DNA from: Streptomyces beijiangensis
Lineage (GTDB): Bacteria; Actinomycetota; Actinomycetes; Streptomycetales; Streptomycetaceae
Assembly: GCF_017315755.1 (NCBI RefSeq)
Contig: NZ_JAFLRJ010000114.1
Span: forward strand, 1 to 64,000
DNA: 64,000 bases
Reading direction: 5' to 3'
In this document: piece by piece, positions 34,192-58,408 of the stretch
Layout of the letters: every line of letters begins with the position of its first letter
Position numbering within the stretch: position 1 is the stretch's first letter
Translations under genes and position numbers: made by a program
The notes under the pieces: generated by a model
The model's input: only the letters and a program-made list of their open reading frames with translations
What the model was told of the DNA's origin: nothing
Database searches by the model: none

Positions 34192-35490
34192 TCAGGCGAC
34201 GACCCGGCTCTCGTGCAGGGTGCGGATGGCGTCCGCGTCGTATCCGAGGCCGGTGAGCACCTCGTCCGTGTGCTCACCGAGCAGCGGTGCGCCGATGATG
34301 TCGGGCGTGAATCCGGAGAACTTGATCGGGCTGCCCACGGTCAGGTAGGTGCCGCGGTCCTTCTGCTCGACCTCGACGATCGTCCCGCTCTTGCGCATGT
34401 CGGGGTCCTCGGCGAGCTCCTTCATGCTGAGCACGGGCGCGCAGGGCACCTCGAAGGTGCGCAGGATGTCGACGGCCTCGTACTTGGTCTTGTCGGCGAG
34501 CCACTTCTCGATCTCGCCGAAGATGTCCATGATGTGCGGCTGGCGGGCCAGGGCCGTGGTGTAGGCGGGGTCCTCGGTCCACTCGGGCTTGCCGATGGCC
34601 TCGCAGGTGCGCGCCCAGTTCTGCTCCTGGACCGTGAAGTAGATGTACGCGTTGGGGTCGGTCTCCCAGCCCTTGCACTTCAGGATCCAGCCCGGCTGGC
34701 CGCCGCCTCCGGCGTTGCCGCCGCGGGGCACCGCGTCGCCGAACTCGCCGTTGGGGTACTGCGGGTACTCCTCCAGGTAGCCGACCTTCTCCAGGCGCTG
34801 CTGGTCACGGAGCTTGACCCGGGTCAGGTTGAGGACGGCGTCCTGCATGGACACCGACACCTTCTGGCCGAGACCCGTCGCGTTGCGCTGGATGATCGCG
34901 GTCAGCAGCCCGATCATCAGGTGCATTCCGCTGTTGCTGTCGCCGAGGGCCGAGCCGCTGATGGTGGGCGGGCCGTCCCAGAAACCGGTGGTGGACGCGG
35001 CGCCTCCGGCGGCCTGGGCGACGTTCTCGTACACCTTGAGGTCGGACCAGGCCGAGGCGTCGTTGAAGCCCTTGACCGAACCGAAGATCAGGCGCGGGTT
35101 GAGCTCGTGGATGTGGTCCCAGCCCAGCCCCATGCGGTCCATGGCGCCCGGCGCGAAGTTCTCGACCAGGATGTCCGCCTCGCGGATCATCTTCTCCATG
35201 ACCGCCTTGCCCTCGGGGGCCTTGGTGTTGATGGCCAGGGAGCGCTTGTTGCTGTTCAGCATGGTGAAGTAGAGGGCGTCGATGTCGGGGATGTCCCGCA
35301 GCTGACGACGTGTCACATCGCCGCCGTCGATGCGCTCGACCTTGATGACGTCGGCTCCGAACCAGGCGAGCAGCTGGGTGCACGCGGGTCCTGCCTGGAC
35401 CCCGGTGAAGTCGATCACTTTGATTCCGGCGAGCGGCATGTCGCTGGCCGGGGGGCCGGGGGTCGCGGCGCGGGAAGACGCAGTACTCAT
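34192..35490 (-). CDS. frc: formyl-CoA:oxalate CoA-transferase (copy 1)
   Basis: A 432-residue class III CoA-transferase. It moves CoA from formyl-CoA to oxalate, priming oxalate for decarboxylation. The N-terminal [34 protein letters not shown] and the catalytic-Asp motif GDSNSGMH (D184, matching Asp169 of the Oxalobacter enzyme) are clear, as is the mobile glycine loop [12 protein letters not shown]. Length fits the family. GAGGA precedes ATG 35490. It lies 57 bases after the oxalyl-CoA decarboxylase gene on the same strand, so the two form an operon and a two-step cycle. A second copy is at 57179. Confidence 0.93.
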
Positions 35491-35547
35491 GAAGGATTCC
35501 TCATTCGTGTCGGGGTCAGTTCATGTCGGGGTGAGGGCGAAAGCGGG

Positions 35548-37308
35548 TCACTTCTTCGCCGGCGTGATGTTGCCGACGGTGATGCCCTTCGGGTTGAGGT
35601 GTGCGATGTGGCCGCTCTCGGTGCCGGCCGAGGGGTCGATCACGCAGTCGATGAGTGCCGGGCCGCCCGAGGCCAGCGCCTCGGTGAGTGCGGCGGTGAC
35701 CTCGGCAGGCGTGGTCGCGCGGTAGCCCTTGCCGCCGAACGCCTCGATCATCAGGTCGTGGCGTGCCGCGACCATCAGGGTCGTCGGCGAGGGGTCGTTC
35801 GTCAGCGGGTTGACGTCGTCACCGCGGTAGACGCCGCCGTTGTTCATGATCACGGTGACGACGGGCAGCTTGTAGCGGCAGATCGTCTCCAGCTCCATAC
35901 CGCTGAAGCCGAAGGCGCTGTCGCCCTCCACGGCCACGACCGGCGCACCGCTCTCGACGGCGGCGGCGATCGCGTAACCCATGCCGATGCCCATGACGCC
36001 CCAGGTGCCGCTGTCGAGGCGGTGGCGCGGCACATGCATGTCGATCACATTGCGCGCGATGTCCAGCGCGTTGGCGCCCTCGTTGACGAGGTAGATCTCG
36101 GGGCGCCGGCGGATCACGTCGCGTACGGCCTTCAGCGCACCCATGAACTGCATCGGGCTCGGGTCGGCTTCGAGGCGCTTCGCCATCTTGGCCGTGTTCT
36201 GCGCCGTGCGCGCCGCCAGCTCGTCCGTCCAGGCCGCGGGGGTAGCGATCTGGCCGGGCTTCGTCCGTTCGGCGAGCGCGTCGAGCACCGACTCGATGTC
36301 ACCGACGAGCGGGGCGGCGATCGGCTGGTTGCTGTCGATCTCCCGGGGCTCGATGTCCACCTGGATGAACTTCGCTTCGGGGTTCCACTGGGGCGCTTCG
36401 CCGTGGTTGAGCAGCCAGTTCAGCCGGGCGCCGACGAGCATCACCACGTCGGCCTTCTTCAGCGCCAGCGAACGGGCGGCGGCCGCGGACTGCGGGTGGT
36501 CGTCGGGCAGCAGGCCCTTGGCCATCGACATCGGTACGTACGGAACGCCGGTGGACTCGACGAAGCTGCGGATCTTCTCGTCCGCCTGCGCGTACGCGGC
36601 ACCCTTCCCCAGCACCACCAACGGCCGCTCGGCAGCCGCAAGGAGCTCGATCGCGCGGTCCACCGCCTCCGGCGCGGGCAGTTGGCGCGGCGCCGGATCG
36701 ACGAGCCGGCTCAGGGTCCTCGCGCCCGCCTCGGCGTCCAGGATGGTGCCGAGCACCGCGGCCGGGATGTCGAGGTAGACACCGCCGGGGCGGCCGGATA
36801 TCGCGGTGCGCAGCGCGCGGGCGATGCCGCGGCCGATGTCCTCGACCCGGCCCACGCGGTACGCGGCCTTCACGAAGGGCTGTGCGGCGGCGAGTTGGTC
36901 CATCTCCTCGTAGTCGCCCTGCTTGAGGTCGACGAGGTGCCGCTCGCTGGAGCCCGAGATCTGCACCATCGGGAAGCAGTTGGTCGTCGCGTTCGCCAGG
37001 GCGACCAGGCCGTTGAGGAAGCCCGGCGCGGACACGGTCAGTGCCACGCCCGGCTTCTTGTTCAGGTATCCGGCGGCCGCGGCCGCATGCCCGGCGTTGC
37101 TCTCGTGCCGGAAGCCGATGTAGCGGATGCCCTGGGCCTGCGCGAGGCGGGCCAGGTCGGTGATCGGGATGCCGACCACGCCGTAGATGGTGTCGACGTC
37201 GTTCATCTTGAGCGCGTCGACGACCAGGTGGTACCCGTCGGTGAGCTCGGCCGGTGCGTCGCCGTTCGCCGCGGTGTCCGTCGCGGCGAGTCCAGATAGG
37301 GCTGTCAT
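35548..37308 (-). CDS. oxc: oxalyl-CoA decarboxylase
   Basis: A 586-residue ThDP-dependent enzyme converting oxalyl-CoA to formyl-CoA and CO2. The activating glutamate is E69 in FRHESNAGHAAAAAGYL. The ThDP/Mg-binding motif runs GDSAFGFSGMELETICRY through VIMNNGGVYRG. The middle domain has the CoA/ADP-binding segments of this subfamily (IDSNQPIAAPLVGD). Length fits the 568-residue Oxalobacter protein plus an N-terminal extension. ATG 37308 has AAGGAGG ten bases upstream; ATG 37335 is an alternative. First gene of the oxc-frc operon, divergent from an acyl-CoA-ligase-like gene. Confidence 0.94.
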   Translation of the reverse strand: MTALSGLAATDTAANGDAPAELTDGYHLVVDALKMNDVDTIYGVVGIPITDLARLAQAQGIRYIGFRHESNAGHAAAAAGYLNKKPGVALTVSAPGFLNGLVALANATTNCFPMVQISGSSERHLVDLKQGDYEEMDQLAAAQPFVKAAYRVGRVEDIGRGIARALRTAISGRPGGVYLDIPAAVLGTILDAEAGARTLSRLVDPAPRQLPAPEAVDRAIELLAAAERPLVVLGKGAAYAQADEKIRSFVESTGVPYVPMSMAKGLLPDDHPQSAAAARSLALKKADVVMLVGARLNWLLNHGEAPQWNPEAKFIQVDIEPREIDSNQPIAAPLVGDIESVLDALAERTKPGQIATPAAWTDELAARTAQNTAKMAKRLEADPSPMQFMGALKAVRDVIRRRPEIYLVNEGANALDIARNVIDMHVPRHRLDSGTWGVMGIGMGYAIAAAVESGAPVVAVEGDSAFGFSGMELETICRYKLPVVTVIMNNGGVYRGDDVNPLTNDPSPTTLMVAARHDLMIEAFGGKGYRATTPAEVTAALTEALASGGPALIDCVIDPSAGTESGHIAHLNPKGITVGNITPAKK

Positions 37309-37387
37309 GGTCCGAGGTCCTCCTTGGGCAGTCATGCATGCGGCTACTCCTCACACCTTCGGCAGCGGGCGCGCCCGCGTCCAAGAC

Positions 37388-37479
37388 CTATCGGCGACCA
37401 GCTGATAAACAACATCTATCGAGGGCGGTACGAGGGCTGCGGCCCGGCCCTCCGTCTCCCTTGATAGACGCCCGCTATC
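37388..37479. promoter_or_regulatory. cluster of GATAG/CTATC half-sites
   Basis: CTATC at 37388, GATA at 37404, CTATC at 37416, GATAG at 37463 and CTATC at 37475 crowd into the divergent oxc/ligase promoter region. GATAG-N7-CTATC (37463-37479) and GATA-N9-TATC (37404-37420) are inverted pairs with LysR-like spacing. The LysR regulator encoded at 39180 is the obvious candidate. Confidence 0.5.
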
Positions 37480-37573
37480 GGCTGTTCGCCAGCGCGTATT
37501 GGACGCGCACCCCGCCCCGGCGCAGGCTCCTGGAGACAGCTTCAACAGACCTGGTGCGCAGGGGGTGGTGGCC

Positions 37574-39175
37574 ATGGCCGTACCGACGACCACGGCAGCC
37601 GTACGGGACGCGGACGGATTCCGCGCCCCGGCGCTCACGGGTCTCGCCGATCTTCTCGACCATCAGGTGCGCACCCGGCCCCGCGCGCGGGCCCTGGTCG
37701 TCGGAGGTGACCGGGTGGAGCTGTCCTACCGCGCTCTCCGGTCCCTGGCCGACGACGTGGCGGGCGCGCTCGCCACGACGGGGCTGCGCCAGGGGGACGC
37801 GGTCGCCCTCCTCTCCGCCAACACGGCCGAGTTCGTCGTCGGGCTTCTGGGCGCGGCGCGTGCCGGTCTGGTGGTCGCGCCGATCGATCCGGCGCTCCCC
37901 CGCTCGCAGTTGACGGCCCGCCTCGACGCGCTGGGGGCGCGGGCGGTCATCACAGGACCGACCGTCTCCGACGCGCAGCCGACAGGCACCCCGGCCTGGC
38001 CTCTGCACGTGGACATCTCCCGTGCGGGAACGGCGACCGCCACGCTCGGCACCGGTGCGCTGCCGGTACGCCGAATCCGTGGTGCCGCAGCGGAGTTGTC
38101 GGCCCAGGACGCCCTGGTCCTGTTCACCGCGGGAACCACCGACCGGGCCAAGATGGTCCCGCTGACGCACGGCAATGTGGCCGCGTCCGTGCGGGGCATC
38201 TGCGCCACCTACGAGCTGGGGCCCGGCGATGCCACGGTCGCGGTGATGCCGTTCTTCCACGGCCACGGGCTGCTCGCCGCGCTCCTGTCGTCCCTGGCCA
38301 GCGGTGGATGCGTACTGCTGCCGGAGCGGGGGCGGTTCTCGGCGGGTACGTTCTGGGACGACGTACGGGCGGTGGCCGCCACGTGGTTCACGGCGGTCCC
38401 GACGATCCACGAGATCCTCCTGGACCGCTCGGCACGCGACTACCCGGGCCCGCGGGCCGCCCCCCTGAAGTTCGTCCGCAGCTGCAGCGCCCCGCTCAAC
38501 CCGGCCACACAGCGGGCGCTGGAACGCACCTTCGGGGCGCCGCTGCTGTCCGCGTACGGCATCACGGAGGCCACGCACCAGGTGACCAGCGAGCCGCTGC
38601 CGCAGCACGGCTTCCTCAAGCACGGCACGGTGGGCCGCTCGACCGGGGCGAAGCTCCGCGTCGTGGACCGCGAGGGGCGCTCGTGCCCGTCAGGCACGGA
38701 GGGCGAGGTCTGGGTGTACGGCCCCACCGTGACCCGCGGCTATCTCACCGGACCGGCCGAGACGGCGCGGAGCTTCAGCGACGGCTGGTTCCGCACCGGC
38801 GACCTGGGCTCACTGGACGAGGACGGCTATCTGTTCCTCACCGGGCGCATCAAGAACCTCATCAACCGCGGCGGCGAGAAGATCTCGCCCGAGCACGTGG
38901 AGGACATCCTCGCCGGTTGCCCGGGGGTCGTCGAGGCGGCCGTGTTCGCGCTGCCCGATCCCGTGTACGGGCAGCGGGTCGGTGCCGCCGTGGTCGTACG
39001 CGAGGGCGAGGGCATCGGGGCCGACCAGATCCTGCGCTACTGCCGCCACCGGCTGTCCGCCTTCGAAGTCCCCGACCGCCTCGACCTCGTCCCGGCGCTC
39101 CCGCACACGGCAAAGGGCGGCCTGGACCGGAAGGCGCTGGAGGCCACGTACTCATCGCGTACGCGCACCGACTGA
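37574..39175 (+). CDS. oxalate-CoA ligase-like AMP-forming acyl-CoA synthetase
   Basis: A 533-residue ANL-superfamily protein, best read as an oxalate-CoA ligase by neighbourhood. Core motifs: P-loop-like FTAGTTDRAKMVPLTHGN, YGITEATHQ, FRTGDLGSLDEDGYLFLTGRIKNLINRGGEKI. Two departures stand out. The A3 loop reads TAGTTDRAK rather than TSGTTGxPK. At the A10 end the sequence is AKGGLDRK, so the catalytic lysine expected after TxxG is a glycine (G516) with a lysine at 514. Activity should not be assumed. ATG 37574 has AGGGGG upstream. It is divergent from oxc and ends four bases before the convergent LysR gene. Confidence 0.82.
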   Translation: MAVPTTTAAVRDADGFRAPALTGLADLLDHQVRTRPRARALVVGGDRVELSYRALRSLADDVAGALATTGLRQGDAVALLSANTAEFVVGLLGAARAGLVVAPIDPALPRSQLTARLDALGARAVITGPTVSDAQPTGTPAWPLHVDISRAGTATATLGTGALPVRRIRGAAAELSAQDALVLFTAGTTDRAKMVPLTHGNVAASVRGICATYELGPGDATVAVMPFFHGHGLLAALLSSLASGGCVLLPERGRFSAGTFWDDVRAVAATWFTAVPTIHEILLDRSARDYPGPRAAPLKFVRSCSAPLNPATQRALERTFGAPLLSAYGITEATHQVTSEPLPQHGFLKHGTVGRSTGAKLRVVDREGRSCPSGTEGEVWVYGPTVTRGYLTGPAETARSFSDGWFRTGDLGSLDEDGYLFLTGRIKNLINRGGEKISPEHVEDILAGCPGVVEAAVFALPDPVYGQRVGAAVVVREGEGIGADQILRYCRHRLSAFEVPDRLDLVPALPHTAKGGLDRKALEATYSSRTRTD

Positions 39176-40112: not shown

Positions 40113-40591
40113 GGACCACCCCTCCCCTGGGCGAGCACCGCATACCAGCAGGCCCGGTCCGCGACAGCGGCACGTCGATGATCCTACAGACCTGCACGGT
40201 GAAGGCACTGGACGAGCGGGCCGCCATGCCCGTCCCCGCTCGGTCACGAAAACCTGCACACCGAATACGCAGGGCGGTCACTTCACTCCAGAACCCTCAT
40301 CACGTAAGGCCCGGATCGAGCGCCTTTGATGGAGGAGTGTCCATTTTGCAGAATGCGGCCACACCTAATTCGCCTGCGCGTTCGCAGTGGTTGTGAAGGA
40401 CCTGATCCTGCCGCGTGAACAGACATGCACGCAGTACCAATTGAGTGCGCACATTCACTCTCACCAGCGATCTTCCGATTGGATGTGCGATGCGCCGACG
40501 TGCTTTGATCCTCCGCATCGCGGAATTCGTCATCGCGACTTCGCGGTCGTCCCCATTTTTTGCAATACCCATGCGAAGGGCAGCTCATATC
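40113..40591. other. 479-base region upstream of LysR and precursor genes
   Basis: No convincing gene lies here. A LysR-type inverted repeat CCTGC-N11-GCAGG is at 40253-40273, 141 bases before the LysR start. From about 40320 the sequence becomes less GC-rich, as expected for the promoter and leader of the peptide precursor gene, but I cannot pick a clear -35/-10 pair. The frame of the precursor is open back to ATG 40445, which would add 49 residues of unlikely composition. Confidence 0.5.
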
Positions 40592-40819
40592 ATGAACTCC
40601 ACTCCCCAGGTCGCCACCGCCGAGATCTCCGACGCCGAGCTCGACAACGTCTCGGGCGGCCTCCTCGGCGGCCTCGCCGGCAACGTCACGGGCACCGCCG
40701 ACGCCATCGCCCCGGTCTCCGGCCTCATCGCCGGCGTCACCGGCACGGTCGAGGGCATCACCGGTCTGAACACCGGTGCGGCCACCGGTCTGGCCACGGG
40801 TCTCGTCGCCGGCCTCTGA
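40592..40819 (+). CDS. double-glycine leader peptide precursor (NHLM-type export substrate)
   Basis: A 75-residue precursor. The leader (residues 1-23) ends ISDAELDNVSGG, a classic double-glycine cleavage site with hydrophobic residues at -4 and acidic helix before it. The predicted core is 52 residues rich in Gly, Ala, Thr, Leu and Val, with no Cys, Ser only once, no Lys or Arg, and two acidic residues. It contains a 17-residue quasi-repeat starting VTGT-x-(D/E)-x-I at core positions 9 and 26. AAGGG lies 11 bases before ATG 40592. The three genes after it encode a complete C39-type exporter. No modification enzyme is near, so an unmodified peptide is expected. Function is unknown: bacteriocin, signal or surface peptide. 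Confidence 0.85.
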   Translation: MNSTPQVATAEISDAELDNVSGGLLGGLAGNVTGTADAIAPVSGLIAGVTGTVEGITGLNTGAATGLATGLVAGL

Positions 40820-40834
40820 GCAAACACTTCCGTC

Positions 40835-40875
40835 AGCCCCGGAACCCGGCAGCCGGCCGGCCGTTCCGGGGCTTT
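40835..40875 (+). terminator. intercistronic hairpin after precursor gene
   Basis: AGCCCCGGAAC at 40835-40845 pairs perfectly with GTTCCGGGGCT at 40863-40873, followed by TT. Lying between the precursor and the transporter genes, it should terminate part of the transcripts and keep precursor mRNA in excess. Confidence 0.75.
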
Positions 40876-40932
40876 CGGCCGCAGAGAACCGGACAAGCAG
40901 CAAGGCAAGCAGCAAGGTAGGGGAAGTCAGCC

Positions 40933-41739
40933 GTGCAGTTCCGCCAACAGGCCCTGTCCAAGCTGCAGTCGCCCGAGGAACTCGACCTCCCCGCGCGCCT
41001 CGCCAGACCCCAGGGGTTGCTCGCCCTCGCGGTGACCGTCGTGGTCATGGCCGCCGCCTCCCTCTGGGCCATCACCGGATCGGTGTCCTCGACCCTGAAG
41101 GCCCCCGGCATCCTCACCCACGGGCAGGGCAGTTACGTCCTCCAGACCCCGGTCACCGGCCAGGTCATGGGCCTGTACGCGAAGGAAGGGCAGCGGCTGG
41201 CCGCCGACGCCCCGCTCCTCAAGGTCCGCACCGCGCAGGGCGACCGCACCGTGCGCGCCGTCGAAGCGGGCCGCGTGACCACCCTCCTCGCACAGGTCGG
41301 CTCCGTCCTCACCACAGGTTCCGACGTCGCCACCCTGGAGAAGACCGGCGCCGCCCGGGACCCGCTGCTCGCGATGCTCTTCGTCCCCGCCGATACCGCG
41401 GCCACCGTCCCCGTGGGCGCTTCCGTGGACCTCACCGTGCAGTCCGCCGCCTCCCAGAAGTACGGCTTCCTGCGCGGCACGGTACGAGCGGTGGGCCGGG
41501 CCGCCCAGACCCAGCGGCAGATCACCGCCTTCCTCGGCGACAAGGATCTGGCCGCGCAGTTCACCCGGAGCGGCCCGCCGGTGGCCGTCCTGGTGAAGCT
41601 GTCCGTGTCGCACTCCACCGTCTCGGGCTACACCTGGACCTCCGCGGCCGGCCCTCCGTACGCGCTCGACTCCATGATCCTCACCTCCGGCGCCGTGCAC
41701 CTCGCCGAGCAGCGCCCGATCGATTGGCTGCTGCCGTGA
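40933..41739 (+). CDS. NHLM-type membrane fusion (HlyD-like) secretion protein
   Basis: A 268-residue protein with one N-terminal membrane helix (GLLALAVTVVVMAAASLWAI) and a biotinyl-lipoyl-like extracellular domain (QTPVTGQVMGLYAKEGQRLAADAPLLKVRTAQG) split by a short loop and closed by RAVEAGRVTTLLAQVGSVLTTGSDVATLE. It lacks the long coiled coil of true HlyD, as expected in a Gram-positive host. It should link the C39 ABC exporter to the outside. GTG 40933 has AGGGGA upstream. Its stop overlaps the start of the next gene (GTGA). Confidence 0.88.
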   Translation: MQFRQQALSKLQSPEELDLPARLARPQGLLALAVTVVVMAAASLWAITGSVSSTLKAPGILTHGQGSYVLQTPVTGQVMGLYAKEGQRLAADAPLLKVRTAQGDRTVRAVEAGRVTTLLAQVGSVLTTGSDVATLEKTGAARDPLLAMLFVPADTAATVPVGASVDLTVQSAASQKYGFLRGTVRAVGRAAQTQRQITAFLGDKDLAAQFTRSGPPVAVLVKLSVSHSTVSGYTWTSAAGPPYALDSMILTSGAVHLAEQRPIDWLLP

Positions 41740-43988
41740 GCAAGCACTCCCCGGCCCCCGCACCGCTGCCTCCCGCCGGGCACGGACGCCGCCGCTCCCG
41801 CCCCTCGCCATCCAGAGCCGCGCCCAAACCGCGGCGCCGCCGCAGAGTGCGTACCCCCACCGTCCTGCAGATGGAGGCCGTCGAGTGCGGTGCAGCCGCG
41901 CTCGCGATGGTCCTCGCCCACCACGATCTGCACGTCCCCCTGGAGGAACTGCGTATCGCCTGCGGGGTCTCCCGCGACGGCTCGCGCGCCTCCAACCTCC
42001 TCAAGGCGGCCCGCAGTTACGGCATGAGCGCCAAGGGCATGCAGATGGACACGGCCGCCCTCGCCGAGGTGCAGGGGCCCGCGATCCTGTTCTGGGAGTT
42101 CAACCACTACGTCGTCTACGACGGCATGGGCCGGCGCTTCGGCCGACGCGGCGTCCACCTCAACGACCCGGACAAGGGCCGCCGTTTCGTGGCGACGGAG
42201 GACTTCGACACCAGCTTCACCGGCGTCGTCCTCGTACTGGAGCCCGGTGACGACTTCTCGAAGGGCGGGCGCAGGCCCGGCATCCTCAAGGCGCTGCCCG
42301 GGCGGCTGCGCGGGACCAGCGGCACCATGCTGGCCGCGCTCCTCGCGAGTCTGCTGCTGGTCGCGGTGGGCGCGTCACTGCCCGCGCTCAGCCGTACCTA
42401 CATCGACCTGTTCCTGATCGGCGACCAGACCTCGCTGCTCGGCGTCCTGTTCGCCTCGATGGGCGCGATGGTGGCCCTGACCGGGGTGCTGACCTGGCTG
42501 CAGCAGGCGAATCTGCTGCGTGGCCGCATCATCTCCTCGACACTGAGCAGCTCCCGCTTCTTCCGGCATCTGCTGCGCCTGCCCGTCCAGTTCTACGCCC
42601 AGCGCAGCCCCGCCGACCTGGTGCAGCGCCTGCAGTCCAACGACGCCGTCGCCGAGACCCTGGCCCGCGATCTGACCGCGGCGGGCGTCGACGGGATCGT
42701 GGTGCTCCTGTACGCGGCCCTGCTCTGGAGTTACGACCCGCAGCTCACGGTGGTCGGCGTGGGCATCGCCCTGCTCAATGTGGTGGCGATGCGCATCGTC
42801 GTCGCACTGCGGGCGACCCGTACACAGAAGCTGCGCGCGGACACCGCACGTCTCACCAACACCTCTTACACCGGGCTGCAGTTGATCGAGACGCTCAAGG
42901 CGACCGGCGGCGAGAGCGGCTACTTCCGGCGCTGGGCCGGGCAGCACGCGATGACGCTGGAGGAGCAGCAGCGGCTCGGGGTGCCGAGCGCCTGGCTCGG
43001 CATCGTCGCACCCACGCTCGCCACCCTCAACAGTGCGCTGATCCTGTGGATCGGCGGTCTGCGCTCGGTCGAGGGCCATCTGTCCGTGGGCCTGCTGGTC
43101 GCCTTCCAGGCCCTGGTCACGCGCTTCACCGCGCCCCTCACCCGGCTGAACGGGGTCGCGGGGCGCGTCCAGGACTTCGCCGCCGATGTGGCCCGGCTGC
43201 ACGATGTGGAGAAGTTCCCCGCCGACTCCCGGTACGCACGCCCGGACGAGGTCGCCGACACCCGGCGGCTGCGGGGCCAGGTCGAGCTGGAGGACATCAC
43301 CTTCGGCTACAGCCCCCTCGACCAGCCACTGCTCTCCGGCTTCTCCCTGACCGTGGGTCCCGGCCAGCAGGTGGCGCTGGTCGGCGGCTCGGGCAGCGGC
43401 AAGTCGACGGTTTCCCGGTTGATCTCTGGCCTCTACTCCCCCTGGGAGGGCGCGATTCGGATCGACGGCCAGCGCCTGGAGGACATTCCCCGCGGGGCTC
43501 TGGCCGCCTCGGTGTCCTTCGTCGACCAGGACGTGTTCCTCTTCGAGGGCAGTGTGCGCGACAACGTGGCGCTCTGGGACCCGTCGATCACGGACGCGGC
43601 CGTGGAGAGTGCCCTGCGCGACGCGTGCCTGTACGAGGTCGTGTCCCGGCGCCACGGCGGAATCCACTGCCGGGTCGATCAGGACGGCCAGAATTTCTCC
43701 GGCGGGCAGCGCCAACGCCTGGAGATCGCCCGGGCGTTGGTGCGCCGTCCCAGCGTGCTGGTCCTGGACGAGGTGACCAGCGCGCTGGACGCCGAGACGG
43801 AGCAGCTCATCATCGACAACCTGCGCAGGAGGGGCTGCGCCTGCGTGGTCATCGCGCACCGGCTGAGCACGGTGCGCGACAGCGACGAGATCGTGGTCCT
43901 CGACCACGGTCAGATCGTGGAGCGCGGCAGGCACGAGCACTTGCTCGCGGCCGGCGGCCCGTACGCCGAACTGGTCAGGGAGCACTGA
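41736..43988 (+). CDS. NHLP-family ABC exporter with C39 peptidase
   Basis: A 750-residue fused peptidase/ABC exporter. After a basic Pro/Arg-rich start, the C39 domain has QMEAVECGAAALAMVL (nucleophile Cys51, oxyanion Gln), FNHYVVYDG (His124) and LNDPDKG (Asp144), so it should be active and cut after the double glycine of the precursor. Six membrane helices span about residues 190-480. The nucleotide-binding domain has Walker A GGSGSGKST, signature FSGGQRQRLE and Walker B VLVLDEVTSALD. GTG 41736 overlaps the preceding stop by four bases; the frame upstream of it is not real. Confidence 0.93.
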   Translation: MSKHSPAPAPLPPAGHGRRRSRPSPSRAAPKPRRRRRVRTPTVLQMEAVECGAAALAMVLAHHDLHVPLEELRIACGVSRDGSRASNLLKAARSYGMSAKGMQMDTAALAEVQGPAILFWEFNHYVVYDGMGRRFGRRGVHLNDPDKGRRFVATEDFDTSFTGVVLVLEPGDDFSKGGRRPGILKALPGRLRGTSGTMLAALLASLLLVAVGASLPALSRTYIDLFLIGDQTSLLGVLFASMGAMVALTGVLTWLQQANLLRGRIISSTLSSSRFFRHLLRLPVQFYAQRSPADLVQRLQSNDAVAETLARDLTAAGVDGIVVLLYAALLWSYDPQLTVVGVGIALLNVVAMRIVVALRATRTQKLRADTARLTNTSYTGLQLIETLKATGGESGYFRRWAGQHAMTLEEQQRLGVPSAWLGIVAPTLATLNSALILWIGGLRSVEGHLSVGLLVAFQALVTRFTAPLTRLNGVAGRVQDFAADVARLHDVEKFPADSRYARPDEVADTRRLRGQVELEDITFGYSPLDQPLLSGFSLTVGPGQQVALVGGSGSGKSTVSRLISGLYSPWEGAIRIDGQRLEDIPRGALAASVSFVDQDVFLFEGSVRDNVALWDPSITDAAVESALRDACLYEVVSRRHGGIHCRVDQDGQNFSGGQRQRLEIARALVRRPSVLVLDEVTSALDAETEQLIIDNLRRRGCACVVIAHRLSTVRDSDEIVVLDHGQIVERGRHEHLLAAGGPYAELVREH

Positions 43989-43989
43989 G

Positions 43990-46881
43990 GTGACGTACAC
44001 ACAGCAGGATCAGGCGTACGCGGCAGCCGACCAGGTCATCACCGCCTTCGGGACGCTCGGCGAACAGGTCGACGGCACCGCTCTGCGCAGCCTGTCCCTC
44101 GAAGGCCCGAACATGCTGTGGCTGGTGGTCGCCGGGTCCATCGACCTGTTCGCAGTGGATCCCATAGCCCAGAGCCACTGGCATTTCCTGGGCCGCCTGG
44201 AGCCGGGCGCGCTGCTCATGGGCCCGGTCCAGGGAACGCAGCACACCCTGATCGGCCGCCCCCTGGAGGGCTGTCTGCTGCGCCGCATCCCGCTGCGGGA
44301 GCTGCCGTACACACCCACCGTGCACGGATACGACCAGCACGGGTACGACCAGCACGGCCACAGCCGGTACGGCTACGACCAACAGGCGCTCAGCCTGGTG
44401 GAGTACGCCTTCTCGCTGGGCGTGGGACGCAGCCAACAAGTGTTGTTCGAGGCCCCGTTGGACGGTCGCACCGTGCCCGACGGGCAGTCCGCGCACAGCG
44501 GCGACGAAGATGTCGTCTGGCTGACGGTCTCCCCCGGCAGTGTGCAGTACGGAGCCTCCTACGCGGCCGACGCCGCCGGGGACCTGCTGCTCGACGGGAC
44601 GCTGTGGCAACGCATGGTCGACCAGCAGCACCGGCTGCTCACGGCGCTCGACCGGTGGATCGAACACCTGGAGAACGCCCACGAGACAAGGACGGCGGCC
44701 GGTCTCAAAGCGGGCGCGACCGTACGCGAACAGGCCGACCGCACCCTCCTTGCCTCCATCGGCCGCCAGGGCGGCTCCCGGCGCGGGGCGCGCACCGGAG
44801 GCGCCGGTGCGGACGGCAGCACGGCCGACGCGACGTACGACGCCTGCCGTCTGGTGGCCCGCGCCGCCGGGATCACCCTGGCCGCACCCGGACTGAGCGG
44901 CGCGGTGACCGAGCGCGTCGACCCCGTCGAGCAGATCGCCCTCGCCGCCAGGGTCCGCACCCGCCCGGTGCGGCTCGAAGGACGCTGGTGGCGGCAGGAC
45001 GCCGGCCCTCTCCTGGGGCACCGGGAGTCCTCGGGGACACCGGTCGCCCTGCTGTGGCGGCGCGGAGGTTACGAGTCCGTCCACCCCTCCAGCGAACGGC
45101 GCACCCGGATCGACGAGGACAACGCGGCGGAGTTCGAGGCGCGGGCGGTGATGTTCTACCGGCCGTTGCCCGACCGCCCGCTCACCCCCTGGCGGCTGCT
45201 GCGGTTCAGCGCCCGCGGCACGCAGGTGGATCTGCGCAATCTGGTCCTCGCGAGCCTGGTGACGGTGGCGATCGGCGCGCTGGTCCCCCTCGCGACCGGG
45301 CAGGTGCTCGGCGTCTACGTACCCGACGCCGCCACGGACCTCATCGTGCAGGTCTCCGTCGCACTCGTCATCTCCAGCGTCGTATCGGCCGCCTTCATGC
45401 TGCTGCAGAATCTGACGGTGCTGCGCCTGGAGGGCAGGGTGGAGAGTGTCCTTCAACCGGCCGTCTGGGACCGGCTGTTGCGTCTGCCGACCCGCTTCTT
45501 CGCCTCCCGCTCCACCGGCGAACTGGCGAGCGCCGCGATGGGCATCAGCGCGATACGCCGCCTCCTTTCGGGGGTCGGACCGCTCGTCGTGCAGTCGGGC
45601 ACGATCGGGCTGCTGAACCTGGTGATGCTTCTCGTCTTCAGCGTGCCCCTCGCCCTGGCCGCCCTCGGCATGCTGGCCGTGATCGCGGCGGTCTTCCTCA
45701 CTCTCGGTCTGTGGGAGCTGCGCTGGCAGCGCCGCCTGGTCAAGCTGAGCAACAAGCTCAACAACCAGGCCTTCCAGACCCTGCGCGGGCTGCCGAAGCT
45801 ACGTGTCGCCGGGGCGGAGAGCTTCGCGTACGCGGCCTGGGCCAGAGAGTTCGCCCAGAGCAGGGAGCTGCAGCGGCGTGCGGGCCGTATCAAGAACGCG
45901 ACGACGGTGCTCAACGCGGTCTATCTGCCTCTCTGCTCGCTCGTACTCTTCATGCTCCTCGCCGGCCCGGCGCGCGGCACCCTCTCGGCAGCCGCGTTCC
46001 TCACCTTCAGCACCTCGGTGACGATGCTGCTGACCTCGGTCACCCAGCTGACCGGGGCACTGCTCTCGGCGGCCGCGGTACTGCCGATGTTCGAGCAGAT
46101 CAAGCCGGTGCTCGATGCCACGCCCGAGGTGCCGAACACCGCCACCCAGCCCGGCACGCTCGCCGGGGAACTGGAGGCGCGCGGGCTGTCCTTCCGGTAC
46201 TCCGAGGACGGTCCGCTGGTCCTGGACGAGGTGTCCCTGTCGATCAGGCCCGGCGAGTTCGTCGCGGTCGTCGGCCCGAGCGGCTGCGGAAAGTCGACAC
46301 TGCTTCGCCTGCTCATCGGCTTCGACAAGCCTGTCGCGGGCAGCGTGCTGTACGACGGCCAGGACCTCGCCGCCCTCGACCAGGCGGCGGTGCGCCGCCA
46401 GTGCGGGGTGGTGCTGCAGAACGCCCAGCCGCTGACGGGTTCGATCCTGGAGTGCATCTGCGGGGCCGAGGCGTACACGCAGGAGGAGGCCTGGGAGGCG
46501 GCGGAGATGGCAGGCCTGGCCGAGGACATCCGGCGGATGCCGATGGGCCTGCACACGATGATCGCGGGCGGCGGAGCCGTCTCCGGCGGCCAGCGCCAAC
46601 GCCTCATGATCGCCCAGGCGTTGATCCGCCGCCCCCGCATCCTGTTCTTCGACGAGGCGACGAGCGCCCTGGACAACGAGACCCAGCGCACCGTCATCGA
46701 CAGCACCCGCGCCCTGAAAGCCACCCGGATCGTCATCGCGCACCGTCTGTCGACGGTCCTGGACGCCGACCGGGTGGTGGTGATGTCCGAGGGCCGCATC
46801 GTCCAACAGGGGTCACCGGCCGAGTTGTTGGCGGACACGGGCGGGCGGCTGCGCGAACTGGTGCGGCGCCAGCTCGCCTGA
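43990..46881 (+). CDS. NHLM-type second ABC transporter protein
   Basis: A 963-residue protein, one base after the C39 exporter stop. The N-terminal about 400 residues have no peptidase; the first 130 resemble a cyclic-nucleotide-binding-like cupin fold and include a tandem HGYDQ repeat (near residues 112-131). Six membrane helices follow from about 420 to 700, then an ABC domain with Walker A GPSGCGKST (about 762), signature VSGGQRQRLM and Walker B ILFFDEATSALD. In NHLM systems this protein accompanies the peptidase-ABC exporter, probably as a heterodimer partner. GTG 43990 is the only reasonable start. Confidence 0.9.
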   Translation: MTYTQQDQAYAAADQVITAFGTLGEQVDGTALRSLSLEGPNMLWLVVAGSIDLFAVDPIAQSHWHFLGRLEPGALLMGPVQGTQHTLIGRPLEGCLLRRIPLRELPYTPTVHGYDQHGYDQHGHSRYGYDQQALSLVEYAFSLGVGRSQQVLFEAPLDGRTVPDGQSAHSGDEDVVWLTVSPGSVQYGASYAADAAGDLLLDGTLWQRMVDQQHRLLTALDRWIEHLENAHETRTAAGLKAGATVREQADRTLLASIGRQGGSRRGARTGGAGADGSTADATYDACRLVARAAGITLAAPGLSGAVTERVDPVEQIALAARVRTRPVRLEGRWWRQDAGPLLGHRESSGTPVALLWRRGGYESVHPSSERRTRIDEDNAAEFEARAVMFYRPLPDRPLTPWRLLRFSARGTQVDLRNLVLASLVTVAIGALVPLATGQVLGVYVPDAATDLIVQVSVALVISSVVSAAFMLLQNLTVLRLEGRVESVLQPAVWDRLLRLPTRFFASRSTGELASAAMGISAIRRLLSGVGPLVVQSGTIGLLNLVMLLVFSVPLALAALGMLAVIAAVFLTLGLWELRWQRRLVKLSNKLNNQAFQTLRGLPKLRVAGAESFAYAAWAREFAQSRELQRRAGRIKNATTVLNAVYLPLCSLVLFMLLAGPARGTLSAAAFLTFSTSVTMLLTSVTQLTGALLSAAAVLPMFEQIKPVLDATPEVPNTATQPGTLAGELEARGLSFRYSEDGPLVLDEVSLSIRPGEFVAVVGPSGCGKSTLLRLLIGFDKPVAGSVLYDGQDLAALDQAAVRRQCGVVLQNAQPLTGSILECICGAEAYTQEEAWEAAEMAGLAEDIRRMPMGLHTMIAGGGAVSGGQRQRLMIAQALIRRPRILFFDEATSALDNETQRTVIDSTRALKATRIVIAHRLSTVLDADRVVVMSEGRIVQQGSPAELLADTGGRLRELVRRQLA
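44323..44382 (+). repeat. four tandem 15-base units encoding HGYDQ-type pentapeptides
   Basis: The units encode HGYDQ, HGYDQ, HGHSR and YGYDQ. The first two are nearly identical in DNA, so the array probably grew by slippage. It lies in the N-terminal cytosolic part of the second ABC protein and is His/Tyr-rich. Confidence 0.85.
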
Positions 46882-47157: not shown

Positions 47158-49188
47158 GTGCGCACCCATGCCACCACCCACGTTCATCCCCTCCCCCTGT
47201 CCACCGTCAGGAACCTGGGCATCCTCGCCCATGTCGACGCGGGCAAGACCACCGTCACCGAGCGCTTCCTGTTCCTGACCGGCGCGATCCACCGGCTCGG
47301 CGAGGTCCATGACGGCAACACCGTCACCGACTTCGATCCGCAGGAACGCGACCGCGGAATCACCATCTCCGCGGCAGCGGTCAGCTGCGACTGGAACGGT
47401 CACCGCATCAATCTGATCGACACGCCTGGACACATCGACTTCGCCGACGAGGTGGAGCGCGCACTGCGCGTACTCGACGGAGCGGTCGCGGTGTTCGACG
47501 CGGTCGCAGGAGTGGAGCCCCAGTCCGAGTCGGTCTGGCGGCAGGCCGACCGTTACGGGGTTCCGCGCATCGCCTTCGTCAACAAGCTGGACCGCACCGG
47601 GGCCGACCTCGACACGGCGGTGGCCTCGATCCGCGACCGGCTGCACACCACGCCGCTGGTCGTGCAGCTGCCGGTGGGACGGGAGTCCGGATTCACCGGA
47701 GTCGTGGACCTGGTACGGATGCGACTGCTCACCTGGGAGGACGCGTACACCGAACGTCCGGTACCCGAAGGCCTGTTGGCGGAGGCGCAACGCCGGCGTG
47801 CCGTACTCGACGAGTCCGTCGCGGGCCTGCACCCGCAGGCCCTGGAGGAGTACGTCCACCACTCCGCGCTCACCGACGCGACACTCGCCGCCGCACTGCG
47901 CGCGATCACGCTCGACGCGAACGGCGGCGGCGTGGTGGTGCTGTGCGGATCGGCGTACCGCAACCGCGGCATCGAACCACTGCTCGACGCGGTGACGGCG
48001 TACCTGCCCTCGCCGCTCGACGTACCGCCGGTGCCGGGCCGGACCGCCGCGGACCCGACGGAGCCGTTCGCCGGCCTCGTCTTCAAAGTGGCGGCGACCC
48101 CGACGGGCCGCCTCACCTACCTGCGCGTGTACGCGGGAACGATTCGGAAGGGGGACCTCGTGCTGGACACGGGCGCGGGCCGCACCGAGCGCATCGGGCG
48201 GATCGTACGGGTACAGGCCGACCGGCACGCGGAGGCGGACCTGGCCGTCGCCGGGGACATCGTCGCCGTGGCCGGCGTGAAGGCGGCGCGCGCCGGGGCG
48301 ACCCTGTGCGCGCCGGACGCACCGCTGCTCCTCGAGCCGGCGGCCGTACCCGATCCGGTCGTCTCGGTCGCACTCGAAGCGGTCCGCAACACGGACACCG
48401 GCCGACTGGCCGGCGCACTGGCCCGCCTCACCGAGGAGGACCCGTCGCTCCGGGCGCGGACCGACCCCGAGACCGGCCAGACCCTGCTCTCGGGCATGGG
48501 CGAACTCCATCTGGAGGTCGCGGTGGAGAAGCTCCGTCAGGCCCACGCCCTGCAGGTCACGGTCGGCCGACCGCGGGTCTCGTACCGGGAAACCGTCGTA
48601 CGGGGCGTCTCGGATCTCGTCTACCGGCACGTCAAACAGGACGGCGGGGCAGGGCAGTTCGCCCACATCGTCCTCGATGTCACTCCGTACGACACCGGGC
48701 AATTCGCCTTCGATTCGACGGTGACCGGAGGCCGGGTGCCGCGCGAGTTCGTGCGCGCGGTGGAGGCGGGCTGCCGGGACGCGCTGGCCGAGGGGCCGCT
48801 GGGCGGGCATCCGGTGACGGGGGTGCGGGTCGTCCTGACGGACGGCTCCACCCACGCCAAGGACTCCTCCGACCTGGCGTTCCGCACGGCGGGCCGACTG
48901 GCTCTGCGCGAGGCGCTGCGGTCGAGCACCATGGCGCTCCTGGAACCGGTCGCCGAGGTCACGGTGACCGTGCCCGAGGACGCCGTGGGCTCGGTGCTCG
49001 GTGACCTCGCGGCCCGTCGCGGCCGGGTGATGGACTCGACGGTACGGGCTGCTGCGGCCGTGGTCACAGCCACGGTCCCGCTCGCCGAAATGTTCGGCTA
49101 CGCCTCCCGGCTCCGCAGCCGCACCCAGGGCCGCGGAACCTTCACCACCCGTCCGACGGGGTACGCACCCGCCCCGGACGAGCGGTAG
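47158..49188 (+). CDS. elongation factor G paralogue / ribosome-protection-like GTPase
   Basis: A 676-residue translational GTPase. G1 is AHVDAGKTT (residues 24-32), G2 includes RGITI, G3 DTPGH, G4 NKLD. Domain II to V follow in the EF-G order, including GMGELHLEV and the domain IV/V segment HVKQDGGAGQFAHI. It is shorter than canonical EF-G (about 700) and lacks the extended G' region, close to TetM/OtrA-type protection proteins and the second EF-G of Streptomyces. No rpsL/rpsG/tuf genes adjoin it, so it is not the housekeeping fusA. GAAAGG precedes GTG 47158. Leader features suggest induction by translation stress (inference). Confidence 0.88.
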   Translation: MRTHATTHVHPLPLSTVRNLGILAHVDAGKTTVTERFLFLTGAIHRLGEVHDGNTVTDFDPQERDRGITISAAAVSCDWNGHRINLIDTPGHIDFADEVERALRVLDGAVAVFDAVAGVEPQSESVWRQADRYGVPRIAFVNKLDRTGADLDTAVASIRDRLHTTPLVVQLPVGRESGFTGVVDLVRMRLLTWEDAYTERPVPEGLLAEAQRRRAVLDESVAGLHPQALEEYVHHSALTDATLAAALRAITLDANGGGVVVLCGSAYRNRGIEPLLDAVTAYLPSPLDVPPVPGRTAADPTEPFAGLVFKVAATPTGRLTYLRVYAGTIRKGDLVLDTGAGRTERIGRIVRVQADRHAEADLAVAGDIVAVAGVKAARAGATLCAPDAPLLLEPAAVPDPVVSVALEAVRNTDTGRLAGALARLTEEDPSLRARTDPETGQTLLSGMGELHLEVAVEKLRQAHALQVTVGRPRVSYRETVVRGVSDLVYRHVKQDGGAGQFAHIVLDVTPYDTGQFAFDSTVTGGRVPREFVRAVEAGCRDALAEGPLGGHPVTGVRVVLTDGSTHAKDSSDLAFRTAGRLALREALRSSTMALLEPVAEVTVTVPEDAVGSVLGDLAARRGRVMDSTVRAAAAVVTATVPLAEMFGYASRLRSRTQGRGTFTTRPTGYAPAPDER

Positions 49189-57178: not shown

Positions 57179-58408
57179 ATGACCCAAGCTCTTGAAGGCG
57201 TGCGTGTCCTCGACATGACGCACGTACAGTCCGGGCCCTCGGCCACCCAGCTCCTCGCCTGGCTCGGCGCGGACGTGGTGAAGCTGGAGGCACCCTCCGG
57301 AGACATCACACGCAAGCAGCTCCGCGACCTCCCGGACGTCGACTCGCTCTACTTCACGATGCTCAACTGCAACAAGCGGAGCATCACCCTCAACACCAAG
57401 TCGGAGCGCGGGAAAGAGATCCTGACGGAGCTCATCCGCCGCTCCGATGTGATGGTGGAGAACTTCGGACCCGGTGCCGTCGACCGGATGGGCTTCACCT
57501 GGGAGAAGATCCGGGAGATCAACCCGAGGATCATCTACGCCTCCATCAAGGGCTTCGGGGACGGTCCGTACACCAACTTCAAGGCGTACGAGGTCGTCGC
57601 GCAGGCCATGGGCGGCTCGATGACATCGACCGGCTTCGCGGACGGCCCGCCGATGGCGACCGGCGCGCAGATCGGGGACTCGGGTACGGGAATCCACGCG
57701 GTGGCCGGCATCCTCGCCGCTCTCTTCCAGCGCGAGAACACCGGGCGCGGGCAGCGCGTCAACGTGGCCATGCAGCACGCCGTGCTCAACCTCTGCCGGG
57801 TGAAGCTGCGCGATCAGCAGCGGCTGGCGCACGGCCCCCTGGCGGAGTACCCCAACGAGGACTTCGGCGACGAGGTGCCGCGTTCGGGCAACGCGAGCGG
57901 CGGCGGGCAGCCGGGCTGGGCGGTCAGGTGCGCGCCCGGCGGACCCAACGACTACGTCTACGTCATCGTCCAGCCCGTCGGCTGGCAGCCCATCAGCGAA
58001 CTGATCGGGCGGCCCGAGCTGGCCAAGGACCCCGACTGGGCGACGCCGGAGGCCCGGCTGCCCAAACTGCCCAAGATGTTCCAGCTCATCGAGGAGTGGT
58101 CGTCGACCCTCCCCAAGTGGGAGGTCCTGGAGAAGCTCAACGCCCACAACGTCCCCTGCGGACCGATCCTCTCCACCAAGGAGATCATCGAGGACGCCTC
58201 ACTGGCCGCCCAGGAGATCGTCGTCGAGGTCCAGCACCCCGAGCGTGGCACCTTCACCACCGTCGGCTCCCCGCTGAAGCTCTCCGACTCCCCCGTCGAG
58301 GTCCTCACCTCGCCGCTGCTCGGTGAGCACAACGCGGAGGTGTACGTCGGCGAACTCGGCCTGGGCGACGAGGAACTGCGCCTGCTGAAGACGGACGGAG
58401 TCATCTGA
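57179..58408 (+). CDS. frc: formyl-CoA:oxalate CoA-transferase (copy 2)
   Basis: A 409-residue class III CoA-transferase alike along its length to the copy at 34192 ([37 protein letters not shown]-type glycine loop). Catalytic Asp167 lies in GDSGTGIH. Without an oxc gene next to it, it may work with the first module or transfer CoA between formate, oxalate and succinate. GAGGGG stands nine bases before ATG 57179. Its stop overlaps the start of the acyl-CoA synthetase gene by one base (TGATG), so the two are coupled. Confidence 0.92.

What the first reader, a model, noticed from the sequence alone, without database searches (positions are those of the whole stretch)
40661..40816. 17-residue quasi-repeat inside the predicted mature peptide
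The core contains VTGTADAIAPVSGLIAG followed directly by VTGTVEGITGLNTGAATG, both starting VTGT-x-(D/E)-x-I, then a Gly/Leu/Ala/Thr tail. The regular small-residue spacing suggests helix packing or self-assembly (glycine-zipper or amyloid-like) rather than a binding epitope.
Basis: seen in the sequence. Interest (0 to 1): 0.5.

Follow-up and report, generated by a model that had tools for sequence, protein, structure and literature searches.

The report
Exported glycine-zipper peptide of Streptomyces

Summary
The letters and coordinates are right: 40661-40816 is the 52-residue core of a 75-residue double-glycine precursor (40592-40819), with VTGTADAI and VTGTVEGI 17 residues apart. As a repeat it is weak (p 0.005 at that offset, 0.08 over offsets 10-29). 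The strong signal is helical: offset 4 (z 4.7), GxxxG 8 against 2.8 expected, glycine and V/I/L/M both peaking at 100 degrees per residue on opposite faces. Helix packing is supported; a cross-beta amyloid pattern is not.

The gene heads an exporter operon of the SCO0753-0756 type, known in S. coelicolor and induced in a dispersed-growth strain. 263 of 392 sampled Streptomyces genomes have a relative. None of 91 cores holds Cys, Lys, Arg, Phe, Trp or Tyr, so a lanthipeptide is excluded for this class.

New here: an unlinked second precursor class with the same leader but another core (42 of 392 genomes, all 42 also with a first-class match), and a bipartite upstream element nearly private to these peptides (16 of 16 sites in 11 genomes; 47 of 48 sites read from a wider search). 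Best guess: an exported helical peptide acting on the producer's own envelope; bacteriocin is the main rival.

The parts
40480..40510 (+). bipartite upstream element TGGA-N15-CGTGCTTTGATC (promoter or operator; which is unknown)
   Evidence: Only match in the window's genome; half site in 87 of 91 transporter-linked upstream regions incl. the window and 9 of 9 unlinked ones, 0.18% in shuffles
40575..40580 (+). GAAGGG, likely ribosome binding site
   Evidence: read directly; GAAGGG or a near variant at about the same place in the relatives printed
40592..40660 (+). 23-residue double-glycine leader MNSTPQVATAEISDAELDNVSGG
   Evidence: positions -4 V, -7 L, -12 I, -15 T identical in 91 of 91
40661..40816 (+). 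52-residue predicted mature peptide (core); stop codon 40817-40819
   Evidence: cleavage after GG inferred from the C39 exporter, not shown
40685..40735 (+). first quasi-repeat unit VTGTADAIAPVSGLIAG
40736..40789 (+). second quasi-repeat unit VTGTVEGITGLNTGAATG
40790..40816 (+). C-terminal LATGLVAGL tail; a 4-residue step varies here between relatives
40830..40878 (+). GC-rich hairpin between precursor and transporter genes, possible partial terminator
   Evidence: I1; fold of the 80 nt after the stop -39.2 kcal/mol; a stem of 10 or more pairs with a loop of at most 9 in 88 of 91 sequences (the window, with a longer loop, is one of the 3 not counted)
40933..41739 (+). HlyD-type adaptor, 268 aa, apparently without the long coiled-coil hairpin
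   Evidence: TIGR03794 146 bits, below its cut-off 156.2
41736..43988 (+). C39 peptidase / permease / ATPase exporter (NHLM ABC1 type)
   Evidence: TIGR03796 991 bits against cut-off 853; Peptidase_C39
43990..46881 (+). second ABC permease/ATPase (NHLM ABC2 type)
   Evidence: TIGR03797 891 bits against cut-off 709

Best explanation
The gene encodes a double-glycine (GG) peptide. The 23-residue leader takes the precursor to the C39 domain of the neighbouring exporter, which cuts after VSGG and moves the 52-residue core across the membrane with the HlyD-type adaptor and the second ABC protein. The core is an unmodified, hydrophobic, mildly acidic alpha-helical peptide with glycine along one face and V/I/L on the opposite face. 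The '17-residue repeat' is close to five turns of this helix. Outside the cytoplasm it most likely packs through its glycine face into oligomers in or on the producer's own membrane or hyphal surface and changes envelope or clumping behaviour. Shown here by computation: gene anatomy, periodicity, composition, conservation, operon, upstream element. Shown by others in S. coelicolor: strong induction of the matching operon in a dispersed-growth strain. Inferred: cleavage, export, oligomers, target.
For: C39-type exporter genes follow directly; a HlyD homologue lies next to the precursor in 95 of 95 relative loci L004-L098, ABC1 in 91 of 95, the other four loci being short or ending early. Leader positions -4, -7, -12, -15 are invariant in 91 of 91; these are the positions reported to bind C39 domains (PMC7018657, passages). 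Helix and glycine face: with weak models 30 and 59. No Lys, Arg, Phe, Trp, Tyr or Cys in 4484 residues of 91 cores, nor in 40 further distinct cores; net charge -1 to -3. Broad occurrence, 263 of 392 genomes, fits a self-directed role better than a weapon. [quoted passage not shown] sco0756 is up in a ppm1 envelope mutant (PMC5882110, passage).
Against: No experiment shows the mature peptide, its cut site or its place. AlphaFold2 models are weak: mean pLDDT 64.4 and 71.3, pTM 0.24 and 0.31, the five core models ranging 46.9-71.3. Hydropathy periodicity is not significant (p 0.15). Induction with dispersed growth is a correlation. SCO0753 was matched by gene order and a relative from S. violaceoruber (L057), not by its own sequence. 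The core evolves faster than the leader (dN/dS about 0.59 against 0.15, non-independent pairs, strong GC3 bias), which a weapon or signal could also show. Weak family hits point to bacteriocins.
Confidence: 0.55

Rival explanations
1. A bacteriocin: the exported helical peptide inserts into the membranes of competitors, perhaps with the second (class B) peptide as a class IIb-like pair.
For: Double-glycine leader, C39 exporter, GxxxG motifs; all class IIb bacteriocins characterised so far are said to contain GxxxG or GxxxG-like motifs (PMC6382864, passages). Weak hits to bacteriocin models: CTB family in 66 of 91, bacteriocin_sig in 51 of 91. An unlinked second gene with the same leader and upstream element.
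Against: No Lys or Arg in 91 cores. No separate immunity gene lies inside the operon; small ORFs outside it were not screened. Relatives occur in 263 of 392 genomes of the genus rather than in a scattered few. The second peptide is present in only 42 of 392 and was not found in the window's genome.
Confidence: 0.27
2. A secreted signal peptide sensed by a Streptomyces receptor, as with GG peptides used in quorum sensing.
For: GG peptides include signals (PMC7018657, abstract and passages); expression of SCO0753 depends on a two-component system (PMC6629963). Weak hits to the VP1 peptide pheromone model in 49 of 91.
Against: Long and hydrophobic with a periodic helix; no sensor kinase among the 15 neighbour proteins scanned with Pfam.
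Confidence: 0.1
3. A surface-coat peptide that forms fibrils, chaplin-like or of the helical (cross-alpha) kind.
For: Hydrophobic; the authors of PMC6629963 compare Sco0753 with the hydrophobic proteins that coat hyphae. Weak hits to a fibril-amyloid chaperone model (FapA) in 12 of 91, close to chance.
Against: The main periodicity is helical, with only smaller Gly bumps at 170-180 degrees in the family mean. No comparison with chaplin sequences was made. Cross-alpha fibrils are not excluded.
Confidence: 0.12
4. A lanthipeptide, as was predicted for Sco0753 in earlier work.
For: Pfam L_biotic_typeA hit (E 0.034, 14.5 bits against cut-off 21.7, residues 6-27). PMC6629963 quotes a prediction of Sco0753 as a bacteriocin-like lanthipeptide.
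Against: No Cys in 91 transporter-linked cores nor in 40 further ones, so no lanthionine can form; no lanthionine-synthesis family among the 15 neighbour proteins scanned with Pfam. PMC6629963 itself notes that Sco0753 has no Cys.
Confidence: 0.02

Closest known systems
SCO0753-SCO0756 of Streptomyces coelicolor
   Same: Same order: small hydrophobic Cys-free peptide, HlyD homologue, two ABC components; reported conserved in many Streptomyces with the same organisation (PMC6629963, passages).
   Different: Probably orthologous, but SCO0753's own sequence was not in hand. Glycine face, second peptide class and shared upstream element are not in the passages read.
Precursor peptides with NHLM-type exporters (PMC2887384, passages)
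   Same: Exporter pair passes the TIGR03796 and TIGR03797 cut-offs.
   Different: No NHLP or Nif11 leader model hit, no modifying enzyme found; adaptor below the TIGR03794 cut-off.
Cyanobacterial bacteriocin clusters / CTB family model NF038167 (PMC3140520, abstract and passages)
   Same: GG leader and C39 ABC exporter; weak model hits in 66 of 91.
   Different: Those cores show very little conservation (PMC3140520 abstract); here the core aligns across the genus. That the two names go together is recalled.
Class IIb two-peptide bacteriocins such as plantaricin S (PMC6382864, abstract and passages)
   Same: Helices with GxxxG motifs.
   Different: Here anionic, and the possible partner gene is unlinked and present in a minority of genomes.
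Pneumococcal ComAB/BlpAB/RtgAB GG-peptide sets (PMC7018657, abstract and passages)
   Same: Exporter chosen by leader sequence; some GG peptides lie away from an exporter.
   Different: Different organism, peptides and regulators.

Membership tests
GG (double-glycine) peptide with C39 exporter | Leader ending GG with hydrophobic -4, -7, -12 | tested here: met
   V, L, I in 91 of 91; -15 is Thr in 91 of 91
GG (double-glycine) peptide with C39 exporter | C39-peptidase ABC exporter beside the gene | tested here: met
   ABC1 in 91 of 95 relative loci
GG (double-glycine) peptide with C39 exporter | Cleavage and export | not testable with these tools
   needs mass spectrometry
NHLM export system | TIGR03796 and TIGR03797 above cut-off | tested here: met
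   991/853 and 891/709 bits
NHLM export system | TIGR03794 adaptor above cut-off | tested here: not met
   146 of 156.2 bits
NHLP/Nif11 precursor family | NHLP or Nif11 leader model | tested here: not met
   no such hit up to E 1 for the window's precursor or among families matched by the 91 members at E 0.1
Lanthipeptide | Cys in the core | tested here: not met
   none in 91 transporter-linked cores. Among unlinked ones, class B L171 and the orphan L104 have one
Lanthipeptide | Lanthionine synthase nearby | tested here: not met
   none among the 15 neighbour proteins scanned with Pfam; not every gene call was scanned
Class IIb bacteriocin | GxxxG motifs | tested here: met
   8 against 2.8 expected
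Class IIb bacteriocin | Two peptides acting together | tested here: inconclusive
   class B gene in 42 of 392 genomes; none found in the window's genome; activity untested
Class IIb bacteriocin | Dedicated immunity gene | tested here: inconclusive
   no room for one inside the operon; small ORFs outside not screened
Class IIb bacteriocin | Antimicrobial activity | not testable with these tools
   assay needed
SCO0753 operon type | Gene order and Cys-free hydrophobic peptide | tested here: met
   against PMC6629963
SCO0753 operon type | Sequence match to SCO0753 itself | not tested
   record not in hand; L057 (S. violaceoruber NRRL S-981) is a relative by name and gene order

The most novel reading that the evidence does not exclude
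Streptomyces run a small private peptide regulon: an exporter-linked glycine-zipper peptide (class A) and, in some species, an unlinked second GG peptide (class B), read from the same bipartite element found almost nowhere else in the genome and exported in trans by the one C39 transporter. The two work together outside the cell, as a two-part membrane or surface assembly that tunes hyphal clumping.
Probability: 0.3. Interest if true: 0.65.

Novelty: new variant of a known kind. Interest (0 to 1): 0.45.

Why it matters
A peptide with relatives in about 60-67% of sampled Streptomyces genomes, whose S. coelicolor counterpart is strongly induced when hyphae stop clumping, has no known function and was predicted to be a lanthipeptide, which its lack of Cys excludes. 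The helix pattern, the composition limits, the second peptide class and the nearly private upstream element turn it into a set of testable parts. Pellet formation matters for how these antibiotic producers grow in fermenters.

Tried and rejected
Lanthipeptide: rejected for the transporter-linked class. Recent DNA duplication: no sign. Cross-beta periodicity: not a main peak. Solved-structure sequence search: only chance-level hits, best E 0.52. Fold searches were not run because the models are weak. Two bipartite patterns failed through wrong spacing of mine: (spacer 18-32; 4 of 91 and 0 of 9) and (16 N instead of 14-15; three hits with 2 mismatches, uninformative). The corrected forms are (TTGG form: 60 of 91 and 6 of 8, 0 of 4950 shuffles). 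The half site is missing in L005, L009, L024 and L085. L007, L011 and L019 show a weak AMP-ligase match upstream (28-29%), not followed.

Rows dropped: A1 holds the window and 90 distinct transporter-linked precursors; identical copies and the two L107 peptides were left out. A3 used every second row of A1, 46 of 91. L104 was added by hand to the unlinked upstream count. The figure of 235 of 392 genomes with a match at E 1e-10 or better, and the check that all 42 class B genomes are among them, are hand counts from the lists.

Full report
What is there. The ORF at 40592-40819 encodes 75 residues: a 23-residue leader ending VSGG and a 52-residue core at 40661-40816. Downstream lie a HlyD-type adaptor, a C39-peptidase ABC exporter and a second ABC protein; upstream on the other strand is a LysR gene. 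Of 15 proteins of the operon and its surroundings scanned with Pfam, none is a peptide-modifying enzyme; not every gene call was scanned, and small ORFs were not screened for immunity genes.

The repeat. At offset 17 the local score has p 0.005, but 0.08 when offsets 10-29 are all allowed. Under a null that keeps the i-mod-4 classes it has p 0.0007, so some repeat signal remains beyond the four-step rhythm. DNA identity of the two units is 28 of 51. The main rhythm is helical: offset 4, z 4.7; offset 7; troughs at 2, 5, 6, 9, 13 and 16. Gly and V/I/L/M peak at 100 degrees per residue, p 0.001 and 0.013; hydropathy also, but with p 0.15. Gly and V/I/L/M lie on opposite faces, -167 degrees apart over the 91 rows; GxxxG is found 8 times against 2.8, 0 of 3000 shuffles. 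In the family mean Gly also has smaller bumps at 170 and 180 degrees (2.7, 2.4, against 4.9 at 100). AlphaFold2 gives only helices, mean pLDDT 64.4 (precursor) and 71.3 (core, other models down to 46.9), so this is support, not proof.

Relatives. 263 of 392 sampled genomes of the genus match at E 0.001 or better, 235 at E 1e-10 by hand count; in a sample of the order, 211 of 293 at E 0.01, from 3 of 9 genera. Relatedness means these are not independent events. In an alignment of the window and 90 distinct relatives, leader residues T9, E11, I12, S13, D14, L17, D18, N19, V20, G22, G23 and core residue G58 are invariant. Offset 17 is the best long offset (12-25) in 56 of 91; offset 4 the best short one (3-11) in 63 of 91. 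Core lengths are 48 (52), 52 (27), 49 (10) and 47 (2). No Lys, Arg, Phe, Trp, Tyr or Cys occurs in the 4484 residues of these cores, nor in 40 further distinct class A cores. Leader dN/dS is about 0.15 and core 0.59 over 1004 non-independent pairs, with strong GC3 bias.

Operon. 95 of 95 relative loci L004-L098 show the HlyD homologue; ABC1 is seen in 91 of 95 (L008, L019, L020 and L095 are short or end early). A hairpin with a stem of 10 or more pairs follows the precursor in 88 of 91, against a mean best stem of 6.6 in shuffles. The window is one of the three not counted, having a longer loop. By inference this could be a partial terminator that makes more peptide than exporter; in S. coelicolor SCO0753 rises more (log2 6.3) than SCO0754-0756 (4.25-4.4) (PMC6629963).

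Second class. Eight precursors share the leader but have a different core without this periodicity. None of their eight 8-kb loci, nor of 12 further loci of 2.5-3.2 kb, holds a transporter homologue. The ten genomes reached through these and two further orphan-leader loci (L104, L107) all have a class A-like precursor match (10 of 10, the weakest at E 2.5e-11), and 9 of 10 have ABC1 at E 1e-150; G596 (L107) has none at that level. In 392 genomes 42 match the class B profile at E 1e-14, and all 42 appear with a match of E 2.3e-17 or better; hypergeometric 9e-11, uncorrected for relatedness. One class B peptide (L171) and the orphan L104 contain a Cys, and 10 of 13 further class B cores have a Lys or Arg, so the composition limit is one of class A only. 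The window's own genome shows only the one precursor (two weak hits of E 0.03-0.06 were not followed), but it is in 1769 contigs and 94.6% complete.

Upstream element. A half site [GC]TGNTT[TA][GC]ATC lies within 300 nt upstream in 87 of 91 class A regions and 9 of 9 unlinked ones (L104 included), against 0.18% in shuffles. The pattern TGGA-N14/15-CGTGNTTTGATC has 16 sites in 11 genomes (10 of 11 have one); by coordinates all 16 precede a class A or class B precursor or, for the window. In 392 genomes 157 have a match and the backwards control has none in any row. I read 48 of these sites: 30 loci (the window's among them) and 18 sites in the 20 stretches, which I chose, some because they looked doubtful. 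46 precede a GG precursor by script (one, L178, of another type) and one more (L179, ending VAAG) by eye; L177 does not. The exact pattern misses variants, so its absence elsewhere means little. Whether it is a promoter or an operator is not known. Searching papers for the motif gave three papers of unrelated fields (listing only).

What is known. [quoted passage not shown] PMC5733086 (passages) lists SCO0753 as up in an aor1 mutant. PMC5882110 (passage) lists sco0756 as up in a ppm1 mutant. PMC6414726 (passage) lists SCO0756 with values -0.8 and 0.6 in a table whose header I did not see. PMC13047742 (passages) reports a Streptomyces gene named type A2 lantipeptide; whether it belongs to this family was not checked. 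None of the passages read mentions the second class, the element or the glycine face. Literature searches made.

Judgement. The gene belongs to a known but uncharacterised operon type. The unlinked second peptide with a nearly private element is the part most worth following.

Noticed in passing
34192-39175 (- and + strands): Beside the LysR gene lie two genes that read like formyl-CoA transferase and oxalyl-CoA decarboxylase (names recalled from the translation, no family search run) and an AMP-binding enzyme.
   Followed up: no
57179-60567 (+): A family III CoA transferase followed by an ATP-grasp/succinyl-CoA ligase-like protein.
   Followed up: no
47158-49188 (+): An elongation factor G-like protein directly downstream of the exporter operon.
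   Followed up: no
40933-41739 (+): The adaptor matches HlyD models at its two ends (29-100 and 106-268), as if the long coiled-coil hairpin were missing.
   Followed up: partly
L104:4001-4195: A third orphan core type with nearly the same leader, containing one Cys, with the half site upstream.
   Followed up: no
L107:3476-4228: Two neighbouring leader-sharing precursors without a transporter in the locus.
   Followed up: no
L178, behind the site at about 290: A longer GG precursor of another type behind the bipartite element.
   Followed up: no
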